Part shown: piece after piece, positions 8,225 to 20,109 of the stretch
How positions within the stretch are numbered: position 1 is the first letter of the stretch
Layout of the letters: each line of letters starts with the position of its first letter
Assembly: GCF_004664715.2 (NCBI RefSeq)
Contig: NC_051069.1
Location: forward strand, 70,392,647 to 70,456,646
Direction: 5' to 3'
DNA length: 64,000 nucleotides
From: Peromyscus leucopus
Taxonomy: Eukaryota > Chordata > Mammalia > Rodentia > Cricetidae
Made by a program: the position numbers and the translations under genes
Notes under the pieces: model-generated
Told to the model about the DNA's origin: nothing
What the model saw: the letters and a program-made list of their open reading frames with translations, nothing else
Database searches by the model: none

Positions 8225-8470
8225 ATGAAGAGGACATAGTGGAAGATATGACCTCCTCAATGAGTGGTGCTGGGAAAACTGGACTTCCCATGCAAAGGGA
8301 GAGATGGACCCTTAGCATACATATTTCACATCACAAAGCTGAAAGAAAGATTGAAACTGAAACCACTAGAGAGCACACTGGGGAAACCCCTTGACATCAA
8401 CTCTTTGGACAGCCCATTGATAGCAAACCAAGAAGCTTTCCAAAGAAAAGGGTGTAATTCACGAAGTAAC
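8225..8470 (+). mobile_element. Decayed L1 ORF2 fragment
   Basis: The plus strand contains 'gagtggtgctgggaaaactg', then a diverged stretch ending 'gcacactggggaaacccctt'. This order resembles the ORF2 region just downstream of reverse transcriptase. The homology is blurred by substitutions and indels. It is older than the neighbouring insertion at 8592 and is not part of it, because that insertion has its own target-site duplication. Confidence 0.5.
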
Positions 8471-8580: not shown

Positions 8581-8591
8581 TAACTCCTCTT
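8581..8591. repeat. Left TSD of the L1 at 8592-11837
   Basis: TAACTCCTCTT, identical to 11838-11848. The L1 oligo-T (antisense poly-A) tail follows directly, as expected for a minus-oriented insertion. Confidence 0.9.
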
Positions 8592-8669
8592 TTTTTGCCA
8601 TTTTTTTTATTTTACAATACTATTCAGTTCTACATAACAGCTACAGATTCCCTTGTTCTCCCACTTCCT

Positions 8670-8706
8670 GCCCCCCCTTCCTTCCAGCCCACCCCCCATT
8701 CCCACC
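8670..8706 (-). other. G-rich tract of L1 3' UTR (potential G-quadruplex)
   Basis: The plus strand shows several runs of three or more C within about 40 bp, so the L1 sense strand has matching G runs. The same tract recurs in the other L1 3' ends (12448-12485, 22440-22530, 23285-23335, 60680-60740). Confidence 0.6.
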
Positions 8707-9526
8707 ACCTCCAGATCAAGGCCACTCCCGAGGACTGAGATCGACCTGATAGACTCAGTCCAGGCAGGTCCAGTCCCCTCCTCCCAGATTGAGCCAAGCG
8801 TCCCTGTATAAGTCGCAGGTTTCAAACAGCTATCTCATGCAGCGAGCCCAGGACCTGGTGCCACTGCCTAGATGCCTCCCAAACAGATCAAGCCAATCAA
8901 CTGTCTCACCTATTCAGAGGGCCTGATCCAGTTGGGGGCCCCTCAGCCTTTGGTTCATAGTTCATGTGTTTCTATTCTTTTGGCTATTTGTTCCTGTGCT
9001 TTATCCAACCTTGGTTTCAACAATTCTTGCTCATATAAACCCTCCTCTTTCTCACTAATTAGACTCCCAGCGCTCCACCCGGGGCCTAGCCGTAGATGTC
9101 TGCATCCAGATTCCTCAGTCCTTGGATGGGGTTTCTGGCACAACTATTAGGGTGTTTGGCCATCCCATCACCAGAGTAGGTCAGTTCCGGCTGTCTCTCG
9201 GCCATTGCCAGCAGTCTTTTGTGGGGGTATCTTTGTGGATTTCTGTGGGCCTCTTTAGCACTTTGTTTCTTCCTTTTCTCATGTGGTCTTCATTTACCAT
9301 GGTCTCCTATTCCTTGTTCTCTCTCTCTGTTCTTGATCCAGGTGGGATCTCCTGCTCTCTTTCCCTCGACCCTCACCGTTCATTGCTCCCACTCATGTCT
9401 GGTTGTTTATGTAGATCTCAGCCATTTCTCCGTCATTGGGTGATCCCCGTGTCTTTCTTGGGGTCCTGTTTTATAAGTAGTCTCACTGGTGATGCGAGTA
9501 GCCGTCCAGTCATCCTTGTTCCACAT

Positions 9527-10106
9527 CTAGTATCCTCCTATGACTGAGTACATACCATATTTGTCTTTCTGACTCTGGGTTATCTCACTCAGGATGATTT
9601 TTTCTAGATCCATCCATTTGCCTGCAAACCTCACGATGTCATTGTTTTTCTCTGCTGAGTAGTATTCCATTGTGTATATGTGCCACAATTTATTTATCCA
9701 TTCTTCAGTTGAAGGGCATCTAGGTTGTTTCCAGGTTTTGGCTATTACAAACAATGCTGATATAAAAATAGCTGAGCAAGTGCTCTTGTTGTATGATTGA
9801 GCATTTCTTGGGTATATGCCCAGGAGTGGTATAGCTGGATCTTGGGGGAGATTGATTCCCAGTTTTCTAAGAAAGCACCATATTGATTTCCAAAGTGGTT
9901 GTACAAGCTTGCATTCCCACCAGCAGTGGAGAAGAGTTCCCAGAGTTCCACATCCTCTCCAGCATAAAGTGTCCTCAGTGTTTTTGAGCTTAGCCATTCT
10001 CACAGGCGTAAGGTGGTATCTCAGAGTTGTTTTGATTTGCATTTCCCTGATGATTAGGGATGTTGAGCAATTCCTTAAATGTCTTTCAGCCATTTGAGTT
10101 TCCTCT
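9527..10106 (-). pseudogene. L1 ORF2p C-terminal region, truncated
   Basis: An open minus-strand frame of about 190 codons ends in TAG at 9527-9529. It encodes the cysteine-bearing C-terminal part of L1 ORF2p (motifs include '[18 protein letters not shown]' and '[17 protein letters not shown]'). It also has the conserved end '[20 protein letters not shown]'. In the intact protein this region follows reverse transcriptase and assists RNA binding and retrotransposition. Here it is cut off from its upstream coding sequence by the inversion at about 10106/10107. Nominal ORF codons beyond 10106 read antisense through the inverted segment. The frame has no internal stop, which fits a young copy. 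It is not expected to be functional alone. Confidence 0.9.
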
Positions 10107-11837
10107 GTTGAGAATTGTTCCACATAATAGAAACAGAAGGGACATTACCAAACTCCTTCTATGAGGCTACAATAACCCTGATTCCCAAACCAAAGATACA
10201 ACAAAGAAAGAGAACTACAGACCGATCTCCCTTATGAACATTGATGCAAAAATACTCAATAGAATACTGGCAAACAGACTCCAAGAACACATCAGAACAA
10301 TTATCCACCATGATCAAGTAGGCTTCATCCCAGGGATTCAAGGGTGGTTCAACATACGAAAGTCCATCAATGTAATACACCATATAAACAAACTCAAAGA
10401 AAAAAACCTCATAATCATCTCACTAGATGCAGAAAAGGCATTTGACAAAATCCAACACCCCTTCATGATAAAAGCCTTGGAGCGATCAGGAATACAGGGA
10501 ACATACCTAAACATAATAAAGGCAATTTACAGCAAGCCAACAGCCAACATCAAATTAAATGGAGAGAAACTCAAAGCAATTTCACTATAATCAGGAATGA
10601 GGCAAGGCTGTCTGCTCTCCCCATACTTATTCAATATAGTACTTGAAGTTCTAGCCAGAGCAATAAGACAACATAAGGAGATTAAGGGGATACAAATTGG
10701 AAAGGAAGAAGTCAAGCTTTCCCTATTTGCAGATGACATGATAGTATACTTGAGTGACCCCAAAGATTCCACCCAGGAACTGATAAAGCTTATAAACACC
10801 TTCAGCAACATAGCAGGATACAAGATCAACTCAAAAAAATCAGTAGCCCTCCTATATACAATGGACAAAGAAGCTGAGAAGGAAATCAGAGATACATCAC
10901 CCTTTACAATAGCCACAAATGACACAAAATACCTTGGGGTAACACTAACCAAGCAAGTGAAGGATCTATATGACAAGAACTTTAAGTCCCTGAGAAAAGA
11001 AATTGAAGAAGATGTCAGAAAATAGAAAGATCTCCCATGCTCATGGATAGGCAGGACCAACATAGTAAAAATGGCAATTTTACCAAAAGCAATCTACAGA
11101 TTCAATGCAATCCCCATCAAAATACCAACACAATTCTTCACAGACTTGGAAAGAATAATACTCAACTTCATATGGAAAAACAAAAAACCCAGAATAGCCA
11201 AAAGAATCCTGTACAATAAAACAACCTCTGGAGGCATCACAATCCCTGACTTCAAGCTCTACTGTAGAGCTACAGTAATAAAAACAGCTTGGCATTGGCA
11301 TAAAAACTGACATGTGGACCAATGGAATCGAATTGAAGACCCTGACATTAACTCACACACCTATGAACATATAATTTTTGACAAAGAGGCCAAAAGAAAG
11401 CATCTTCAACAAATGGTGCTGGCATAACTGGATATCAACATGTAGAAGGCTGCAAATAGATCCATATCTGTCACCATGCACAAAACTTAAGTCCAAGTGG
11501 ATCAAGGACCTCAACATAAATCTAGCTACTCTGAACCTGCTAGAAGAGAAAGTAGGAAGTAGTCTTGAACACATTGGCATAGGAGATCATTTCCTAAATA
11601 TAACACCAGTAGCACAGGCACTGAGAGATCAATCAATCAATGGGACCTTTTGAAACTGAGAAGCTTTTGTAGAGCAAAGCATACAGTCAACAAGGCAAAG
11701 CGACAGCCTACAGAATGGGAAAAGATCTTCACCAACCCCACATCTGACAGAGGACTAATATCCAGAATATATAAGGAACTCAAGAAATTAGACATAAAAA
11801 AAGACCAACAGTCCAATTAAGAAATGGGCTATAGAAA
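10107..11837 (+). pseudogene. L1 ORF2p reverse transcriptase region, inverted and interrupted
   Basis: The plus-strand frame encodes the L1 reverse transcriptase, which copies L1 RNA into DNA at the nicked target. It starts in the fingers region ('[17 protein letters not shown]'). Palm motif A is '[14 protein letters not shown]' (about 10410-10455), and the catalytic motif FADD lies at 10726-10737 with both aspartates intact. Then come '[18 protein letters not shown]' (11071 on) and '[13 protein letters not shown]'. The frame is broken by TAA at 10588-10590, TAG at 11023-11025 and TGA at 11308-11310. Further downstream the 'QQMVLA' stretch is also followed by a stop. No upstream endonuclease domain or ORF2 start is present. 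The segment is inverted relative to its own 3' end, so it is a dead fragment. Confidence 0.93.
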
Positions 11838-11848
11838 TAACTCCTCTT
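11838..11848. repeat. Right TSD of the L1 at 8592-11837
   Basis: TAACTCCTCTT, exact match to 8581-8591. It abuts the left duplication of the next L1 with no base between them. Confidence 0.9.
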
Positions 11849-11863
11849 AAGAATCAGTTCTAC
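11849..11863. repeat. Left TSD of the L1 at 11864-12548
   Basis: AAGAATCAGTTCTAC, matching AAGAATCGTTTCTAC at 12549-12563 in 13 of 15 positions. Confidence 0.85.
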
Positions 11864-12548
11864 ACCAAGACTGAGCAAAGTGTCTTACCATAGGCACTAG
11901 GATGCAAAAAGCCGGCTCATGCACTAGGGATGGGTCCCATTCCCACTGCCTGGGGGCCCCCTAAACAGTTCAAGCTAAACAACTGTCTCGCTTATCTAGA
12001 GGGTCTAGTCCAGTACCATGAGAGCTTTCCAGCTACTGGTCCACAGTTCATGTGTCTCCACTAGTTTGGCTAGTTGTCTCTGTACTTTTTCCAATCATGG
12101 TCTTAATATCTCTTGCTCATAGGATCCCTCCTTTCTCTTGTCATTTGGACTCCTGGAGCTCTGCTTAGGAATCGGCCAAGGATCTCTGCATCTGCTTCCA
12201 TCAGTCACTAGATGAGGGTTCTATGATGACAGGTGGGTATTCAGCCATCTGATCACCAGAGTAGGTCAGCTCAGGCACCCTCTCGAACATTGCCAGTAGT
12301 ATAGGTTGAAGTCATCTTTGTGGATTCCTGGAATCTCCCTAACACTTGGTTCAGGGAGGAGGGGTTGGACCTGCCTCAACTGAGTGTACCAGGCTCTGCT
12401 GACCCCCCATGGGAGACCTTGCCTTGGAGGAGGTAGGAATGAGTGGTGGGTTGGGGGAGAGGGCTAGGGGATGGGAGGGGGAAGGACAGTGGAATCTGTG
12501 GTTGGTATGTAAAATGAATAGAAAATCTCTTAATAAAATAAGGAAAAA
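11864..12548 (+). mobile_element. Short twin-primed L1 3' end
   Basis: The plus-strand 3' segment (12354-12548) starts 'cagggaggaggggttggacc' and ends in an AATAAA-containing A-rich tail. The preceding 490 bp (11864-12353) are upstream 3' UTR in the opposite sense. The far-left word 'caccaagactgagc' is the reverse complement of the sequence that normally joins 'cagggaggagg', so the two pieces abut in the source element. A 15-bp target-site duplication (13 of 15) brackets the whole. Only 3' UTR is present, with no coding sequence. Confidence 0.9.
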
Positions 12549-12563
12549 AAGAATCGTTTCTAC
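12549..12563. repeat. Right TSD of the L1 at 11864-12548
   Basis: AAGAATCGTTTCTAC, directly after the A-rich tail. Confidence 0.85.
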
Positions 12564-18108: not shown

Positions 18109-20109
18109 GCTCTCAAAGAAAACTTTAACAATAGCCAGTGAGTCTAAATGTCGAGCTGCAACTATAAAAAGGAATACTTATCTTTATGTCTATGCATCAA
18201 AACAAGACCAAGTCACCTTCAGTCTTTGGGTCCCTTTCCTCAAGACCATGTGGGTCCTTAGAACTAGACTTCCAGGTTTGCTTGAGTTTTGTAATTCAGT
18301 TTGTGAAACTATCCTATGGCCGTCTAACTTATATTTGCTTGATGGTATAAATTATTAGAATGTGATTTCCACATGATAAAGACAGTATTTAATTTTTCTG
18401 CAAGTGATTTTTAATATGAAACTAGGCTTGAAATTTTGCAGAAGAAGAACTGAAGGAAAATCATAAGTGACATGAGAATTAGAGGCAAGGTTTAAAGATT
18501 TGTATTTTGACATGTAGAAAGTGTTGAAAGTCGTTGAAACACAAAACAAACAAACAAACAAAACACCACAAGAAATGTGTGCATCATGAAGACCAGTTTG
18601 ACAGCAGCATGTGAGCAAGAGGAGTTAGGACACGGTGGAAGAGCCTCAATGAAAAGGAAGAGAATATACGGTTTCCTGAGTGGGTCCTGGGTTCCATCGC
18701 TTTCCCGATTCATTTTTGGTACTGACCACTTTAAAACAGAAAAAAAAAAGTTAAAGGGAAAGAAATCTAGAGAACAACATCCTATCTTAGCATTAATTCT
18801 AATAGTCATTAATAAATGTTTTAACAAAATAATACCAAACACAGCCAGGCAATATTGCACACAAACCCTTATACAATACAGGAAGGGCTCCACAGCAGGC
18901 ATACATGCTGCCTGAGTTGTGAAAGCTTTCCTCAGTACTGCAAGACATTCACTTTCATTGTTCCCTGCCTGTCTGTGAGGGTGATAGACTGGCCCACGCT
19001 TCAGAACATAGCTCTGGGTTTAACCGTCTTCCTCCCAGAAATCCTCTCCAATAGGCAGGGAGCTCTTTATTCTTTCTCCTTTCTTTTCTTTTTCCAGTAA
19101 TGGGACAAAAAAAAGTAAGAGGAATGTGCAGAATTTAATAGCACTTCCAACCTTTTAGGTGAAAGCAACCACTTTTTGGTGTCAAAGAGATCCTAGACAG
19201 ACCCGTCATATTTCATTTATTTCTTTGTACTTTGCTTTTTCAGGTATCACTGAAAAAGGATAAATTAACAGATGGAGGGAGGTCACAAAGAGGAGAGGTA
19301 AGAAAAGAACACACTGCTCAAAGGACAACAATTCATTTGGGCTTGGACACAGTACACAAGGGAGTGTGAGTGCGAATAAGATGACAGAATCTTACAGTTC
19401 CATCACATGAGACGTAAGTGCTTCTCAATCAAGAGAAAGTTATTTCATCTACTTAAGTCACATCAATACTTGGTTGAAGTAATGGGCATGGAATTATTTG
19501 AGAATATAACAGGAGCAAGCCTGTAGTTATATCTTCTATGTTCTATTGAACTTAACAAATACTCATTTCCTGGTTCAGAATTTGCAAACAAAATGTCCTG
19601 GGAAACTATAAAAAAAGAAACTGCTCAGAGATAGATATGCCCCTCTTTCCCAGTGGAGTGGTGGTGACCTGCCACCTTGTCACTGTGAACATATGTTCCT
19701 GAGAGACCAGCAAATTCCCGATTCACAGCAACAGCAAACTATTTCTCTGAAACACTTAAAGCATATTTGATTAAAAAAATAATTGATTTTCAAATCATCT
19801 CGATTTATAGGGTTATTTAAATGAAAGGCAAGAAAACATGATACTGAGATTATTAGTAGTCTGTCCAAAACTGAAACAGGCTGTCCTCTATATTTTCAAA
19901 TTTGGCAAAAGAATGTAAATATATATTTTGACAAAGTTAATCCAGTCAATCCATGTTCTATCAAGGGAAATGTAAAATATATGTGTAGTAAATGCTTGGT
20001 CTGTGTTACATACAATGCTCTTAAATGAGGTACTTTTGCTTTTCTGTAAAAGTGAGGTTTAATTATATTTTTTCAGGTCTTAGTTTCCTCAAAATATTCA
20101 GAAACAATA
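18109..20109. other. Unique DNA, no gene seen
   Basis: A short (AAAC)n lies at 18541-18562. The overlapping frames at 18492-18915 run on opposite strands through the same DNA with no known domain, so they are probably chance. Confidence 0.45.

What the first reader, a model, noticed from the sequence alone, without database searches (positions are those of the whole stretch)
11838..11863. One palindromic L1 endonuclease site used twice, on opposite strands
The right TSD of the minus-oriented L1 (TAACTCCTCTT, 11838-11848) touches the left TSD of the plus-oriented L1 (AAGAATCAGTTCTAC, 11849-11863) with no base between. The junction is TCTT/AAGA (11845-11852), a perfect palindrome close to the L1 endonuclease preference TTTT/AA. 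Cutting the top strand there gives the first insertion. Cutting the bottom strand at the same point gives the second. An insertion by either element regenerates the site, so the locus stayed vulnerable. The first TSD is exact and the second has two mismatches, which hints that the 11864 element is older.
Basis: partly seen in the sequence, partly recalled or inferred. Interest (0 to 1): 0.75.

Follow-up and report, generated by a model that had tools for sequence, protein, structure and literature searches.

The report
Twice-hit L1 retrotransposon target site
Two jumping elements of different age landed head to head at what looks like the same short mirror-symmetric DNA site, one on each strand; this fits the known cutting preference of the L1 enzyme and seems to have happened elsewhere in the same genome.

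Summary
Two L1 copies sit head to head, and everything between them is one target-site duplication (TSD) from each: TAACTCCTCTT (11/11) touching AAGAATCAGTTCTAC (13/15 against its right copy). The junction TCTT/AAGA is a perfect 8-nt palindrome, so both strands offer TCTT/AA to the L1 endonuclease. T and A tails blur each nick by up to 2 nt, so 'no base between' means 0-4 nt unless the TT/AA preference is assumed.

Their shared 3'UTR parts are 70-72% alike, and the right element is about four times older (terminal branch 0.082 against 0.020), matching two and zero TSD mismatches. They are not one rearranged element.

In the same genome, a strict pattern found 17 head-to-head B1 SINE pairs 10-40 nt apart; 15 spacers contain TTAA. 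In 6, both TSDs appear to touch at the cut (2 very clear, several weak). Human NF1 (PMC3219598) is a published case of one site used on both strands.

So the reading is sound but ordinary: a well-preserved member of a known kind. The orthologous empty site could not be tested, because no relatives are held.

The parts
8581..8591 (+). Left target-site duplication of the younger, minus-oriented L1 (TAACTCCTCTT)
   Evidence: Exact match to 11838-11848, followed by an interrupted T tail
8592..10116 (-). 3' part of the younger L1 (T tail, 3'UTR, end of ORF2), minus orientation
   Evidence: Genome copies
10113..11837 (+). Inverted 5' part of the younger L1 (ORF2, reverse transcriptase region); homology runs on to 11840
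   Evidence: RVT_1 and LINE-1 ORF2 matches; uninverted copies
11838..11848 (+). Right target-site duplication of the younger L1
11845..11852 (.). Palindrome TCTT/AAGA, the inferred endonuclease site on both strands
11849..11863 (+). Left target-site duplication of the older, plus-oriented L1
11864..12346 (-). Inverted 5' part of the older L1 (3'UTR, antisense)
   Evidence: Genome copies
12345..12548 (+). Sense 3' end of the older L1 with a short A tail
   Evidence: Genome copies; sequence
12549..12563 (+). Right target-site duplication of the older L1 (two differences)

Best explanation
One L1 endonuclease site, TCTT/AAGA, was used twice, on opposite strands, far apart in time. First an older L1 nicked the bottom strand at TCTT/AA, primed there, inserted in plus orientation and duplicated AAGAATCAGTTCTAC; twin priming inverted its 5' part. 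This left TCTT/AAGA intact at its left edge. Later a younger L1 nicked the top strand at the same TT/AA, primed on CTCTT, inserted in minus orientation and duplicated TAACTCCTCTT; twin priming inverted its 5' part too, with 3 nt (TAA) of homology between element and TSD. Shown by sequence: two elements, two TSD pairs, two inversions, different sequence families and ages, an intact palindrome. Inferred: the exact nick positions (chosen by consensus preference), the twin-priming mechanism, and the empty site.
For: TSDs and palindrome. Uninverted genome copies place both breakpoints. Ages: terminal branch 0.082 and private differences 29/445 for the right element, 0.020 and 10/684 for the left; expected TSD mismatches about 2.0 and 0.3, observed 2 and 0. 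The 3'UTR parts are 70-72% alike. L1 identity from ORF2 pieces. Similar geometry in 6 of 17 head-to-head B1 pairs. Precedent: the NF1 intron 14 site used on both strands in unrelated patients (PMC3219598, section 7 read).
Against: The tails make each nick ambiguous by up to 2 nt, so nicks up to 4 nt apart are not excluded. No orthologous or paralogous empty site was available: the joined flanks matched only this locus. Close head-to-head B1 pairs are not in overall excess: 17 at spacings 10-40, 18 at 41-59, 14 at 60-90. Only 2 of the 6 touching B1 pairs have clean TSDs at homopolymer tails on both sides.
Confidence: 0.88

Rival explanations
1. Two neighbouring but distinct nicks, 1-4 nt apart, were used; the shared TT/AA is an artefact of the tail and TSD ambiguity.
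For: The T run after CTC and the A run before GAATC allow other edges.
Against: Only TT/AA gives the endonuclease consensus on both strands; in the two clearest B1 pairs (L082, L083) the TSDs also meet at TT/AA, though with the same tail ambiguity.
Confidence: 0.08
2. The two pieces are one rearranged L1, or one event that used two templates.
For: Both pieces are L1, adjacent, and both carry inversions.
Against: 70-72% identity over shared 3'UTR parts, fourfold different terminal branches, two separate TSD pairs, and each inversion is complete within its own TSDs.
Confidence: 0.01
3. Two L1s inserted at separate sites and a later deletion brought them together.
For: Nothing specific.
Against: The spacer is made wholly of the two TSDs, and each TSD pair is complete; a deletion would have to end exactly between them.
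Confidence: 0.03

Closest known systems
NF1 intron 14(10c) site used twice (Wimmer et al. 2011, PMC3219598; section 7 and passages read)
   Same: One L1 endonuclease site nicked on the antisense strand for one element and on the sense strand for another
   Different: Alu elements in unrelated patients, on separate alleles; here two L1s sit in cis on one chromosome
Twin-primed (5'-inverted) L1 insertions (described in PMC2837659; abstract and passages seen)
   Same: Two oppositely oriented pieces of one L1 inside one TSD pair, with short homology at a TSD junction
   Different: Two such insertions lie back to back here
Head-to-head B1 pairs with touching TSDs in the same genome (L082, L083)
   Same: TSDs meet at a TT/AA, 5' ends facing
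   Different: SINEs, not L1s; their relative ages were not measured

Membership tests
L1 insertion by target-primed reverse transcription | Target-site duplication flanking each element | tested here: met
   11/11 and 13/15
L1 insertion by target-primed reverse transcription | A-rich tail next to one TSD | tested here: met
   T5-GCCA-T8 after 8591; A run before the TSD at 12549
L1 insertion by target-primed reverse transcription | Nick at a site like 5'-TTTT/AA | tested here: inconclusive
   TCTT/AA fits on both strands, but tail ambiguity allows other bonds
L1 retrotransposon | ORF2 reverse transcriptase of L1 type | tested here: met
   Younger element: RVT_1 and LINE-1 ORF2 chains. The older element carries 3'UTR only and is called L1 by 70-72% identity to the younger one
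Twin-primed L1 | Inverted 5' piece adjoining the rest in uninverted copies | tested here: met
   Left: 17 of 19 copies join 11840 to 10116 with 6 nt between. Right: pieces contiguous on opposite strands in genome copies
Opposite-strand reuse of one site | Two independent events | tested here: met
   Terminal branches 0.082 and 0.020; 70-72% identity
Opposite-strand reuse of one site | Both nicks at the same TT/AA | tested here: inconclusive
   0-4 nt ambiguity from the tails
Opposite-strand reuse of one site | Orthologous empty site reads as the joined TSDs | not testable with these tools
   No relatives held; no paralogous empty site found

The most novel reading that the evidence does not exclude
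Palindromic TTAA-centred sites act as lasting two-way insertion hot spots: each insertion leaves a live site for the other strand, so a measurable class of head-to-head retroelement pairs comes from one site used twice. In this genome 6 B1 pairs fall at the exact site, against about 0.64 pairs per offset at spacings 41-90 (32 pairs over 50 offsets), roughly a tenfold difference.
Probability: 0.35. Interest if true: 0.4.

Novelty: new member of a known kind. Interest (0 to 1): 0.25.

Why it matters
It is a clean fossil of what looks like one endonuclease site used on both strands, with order and relative age readable from the sequence. The B1 survey shows that such double hits can be found with a simple pattern, so the effect of site symmetry on re-insertion could be measured genome-wide. 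It also bears on parallel insertions when retroelements are used as phylogenetic markers. In itself it agrees with known L1 behaviour.

Tried and rejected
One rearranged L1: rejected.

Shared 11-mer. TCAGTTCTACA (11854-11864, most of the older element's left TSD plus one base) also occurs in the younger L1's 3' end (8624-8634). I considered a template switch or conversion. Shuffled junctions share a word of 11 or more with that L1 in 65 of 2000 trials, and random window 29-mers in 163 of 2000, so I treat it as chance.

Paralogous empty site in the assembly: the joined flanks matched only this locus, in two pieces.

General excess of close head-to-head B1 pairs: not found (17 at spacing 10-40, 18 at 41-59, 14 at 60-90).

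First dating script: wrong, because loci were not turned to one strand; replaced. One search used 28 of the 29 plus-type relatives fetched (L024 dropped, because its longest match lay elsewhere in the locus) and 29 of 29 minus-type relatives. Both sets are the best-scoring 29 of the 39 relatives listed, which themselves scored 40 of 11668 and 40 of 5804 candidates; they are not random copies.

TSD script on the 17 B1 pairs. Seven pairs reach p <= 0.01 on both sides. I set L090 aside: its left match is 14 nt running into the T tail, so its TSDs are about 11 nt apart although its spacer holds TCTTAAGA. Of the six kept, L084 has no A tail before its right match, L092's left match lies farther out than in the others, L094's right match follows an A-rich but not pure A run, and L097 has no TTAA and meets at TTCT/AA. 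L085 and L087 were not testable (a half under 7 nt). L095 has no TTAA and failed at a substitute cut. The remaining seven (L086, L088, L089, L091, L093, L096, L098) lacked support on one or both sides at that cut. The cut was chosen as the best of those possible, and the p-values (300 shuffles each) are per test and uncorrected.

Papers: six searches were answered. In their listings I saw no paper on touching TSDs of two elements in cis; the library lacks most subscription journals, and most listed papers were not opened.

Full report
What is there. The window lies at G000:C7:70392647-70456646 in an unnamed 2.475-Gb assembly for which no relatives are held. Left to right: TSD TAACTCCTCTT (8581-8591); an interrupted T tail and antisense L1 3' sequence (8592-10116); L1 ORF2 in + sense (10113-11837); TSD TAACTCCTCTT (11838-11848); TSD AAGAATCAGTTCTAC (11849-11863); antisense L1 3'UTR (11864-12346); sense L1 3' end with a short A run (12345-12548); TSD AAGAATCGTTTCTAC (12549-12563). 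TCTTAAGA at 11845-11852 is a perfect palindrome, with TTAAGA on both strands.

Is it more than chance? Over the whole window the motif counts are unremarkable: three exact copies of the 11-mer where up to one mismatch gives 2.16 expected, reached by 37 of 100 shuffles, and seven matches to the 15-mer with up to three mismatches against 3.66, reached by 4 of 100. The weight lies in position: shuffled 11-mers matched fully near the T-tail boundary in 2 of 5000 trials, and shuffled 15-mers reached 13/15 near the A-tail boundary in 0 of 5000. The 26-nt junction is unique in the assembly. The tails blur the TSD edges: the minus nick could lie at any of three bonds ending at CTCTT/AA, and the plus nick at any of three starting at TT/AAGA. 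The touching arrangement is the one in which both nicks are TCTT/AA; the sequence alone allows 0-4 nt between the nicks.

Both elements are 5'-inverted L1s. ORF2 pieces 10165-10587 and 10591-11022 match RVT_1 (two further pieces, 11026-11307 and 9530-10144, matched no Pfam family), and the second matches LINE-1 ORF2 chains such as 8sxt_A at E 4.2e-53. Of the 19 other copies L063-L081, 17 join the base matching 11840 to the base matching 10116, on opposite strands of the window, with 6 nt between; L079 does so with its match ending 2 nt earlier, and L078 breaks off. In six of the 17 (L064, L065, L066, L072, L073, L081) the matches cover 10113-11840 unbroken. So the left element is a 5' inversion with 6 nt lost and 3 nt (TAA) of homology to its TSD. 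For the right element, genome copies carry 11864-12346 and 12345-12548 contiguous on opposite strands with about 6 nt overlap. Twin priming is described with this anatomy in PMC2837659 (abstract and passages).

They are different elements of different age. The shared 3'UTR parts are 70.3% alike over 390 columns and 71.7% over 173. On trees of best-scoring genome relatives the right element's terminal branch is 0.082 (private differences 29/445; 28 relatives, one dropped) and the left one's is 0.020 (10/684; 29 relatives). At those private rates two TSD copies should differ at about 2.0 of 15 sites (right) and 0.3 of 11 (left); observed are 2 and 0.

Order and mechanism. The right element nicked the bottom strand at TCTT/AA and left TCTT/AAGA intact at its left edge; the left element later nicked the top strand there. 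The 5' ends must then face each other with the two TSDs back to back, as seen. The palindrome is still intact. 'Stayed vulnerable' is true in the sense that the site is still there; no extra vulnerability is shown.

Does it happen elsewhere? B1 SINEs are thought to use the same endonuclease (recalled). A strict head-to-head B1 5'-end pattern with 10-40 nt between found 17 pairs in this genome; it is exact, so this is a lower bound. 15 of 17 spacers hold TTAA, against a mean of 7.9 and a maximum of 14 in 2000 shuffles. Taking the spacer's TTAA (or, in the two without one, a similar motif) as the cut, both halves matched the outer flanks at p <= 0.01 in 7 of 17 pairs. One of these, L090, I set aside because its left match is only 14 nt running into the T tail, so its TSDs lie about 11 nt apart. 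Six are left: L082, L083, L084, L092, L094, L097. L082 (16/16 and 14/14) and L083 (17/17 and 16/17), both beside pure T and A tails, are very clear; the other four have weaker tails, positions or cut motifs. Two spacers were not testable, and the other eight lacked support on one or both sides. Pairs at spacing 41-59 number 18 and at 60-90 number 14, so close pairs as a whole are not in excess. The exact-site class (6, or 2 if only the clearest count) stands against about 0.64 pairs per offset (32 over 50 offsets, my arithmetic). I would expect a figure of that order from endonuclease preference alone, and I did not separate preference from symmetry.

Empty site. A query made of the left flank, one copy of the 15-nt TSD and the right flank matched only this locus, in two pieces meeting exactly at the predicted point. 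So there is no paralogous empty site in the assembly, and the orthologous one could not be sought.

What is known. In human NF1 the same endonuclease site in intron 14(10c) was used on the antisense strand for an AluY and on the sense strand for an AluYb8 in unrelated patients; 18 insertions used 15 sites, three of them twice (PMC3219598, section 7 read). The same paper names reused sites in APC, F9 and BTK (passages). So opposite-strand reuse is documented; here it is fossilised in cis with L1s.

Verdict. Observation confirmed and main interpretation supported, with the 0-4 nt caveat and an untested orthologous empty site. A new member of a known kind, of modest interest.

Noticed in passing
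window 8254-8283: 80% identical to 11403-11432 in the younger L1's ORF2; probably part of an older L1 lying just left of the double insertion.
   Followed up: partly
window 8624-8634 and 11854-11864: TCAGTTCTACA is shared by the older element's left TSD edge and the younger L1's 3' end; shuffles suggest chance (65 of 2000).
   Followed up: yes
window 18617-18627: A third exact copy of TAACTCCTCTT, on the minus strand; no link to this locus was looked for.
   Followed up: no
L090 (G000:C6:52245116-52245745): A head-to-head B1 pair whose spacer holds the same TCTTAAGA octamer, but whose two TSDs lie about 11 nt apart.
   Followed up: partly
L085 (G000:C1:102272078-102272689): A head-to-head B1 pair with a 20-nt spacer in which the two candidate TSDs seem to overlap rather than touch.
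   Followed up: no
L068, L069, L070, L074, L076, L077: 6 of the 19 copies of the younger L1 (best-scoring, not random) carry inversions of their own elsewhere.
   Followed up: no
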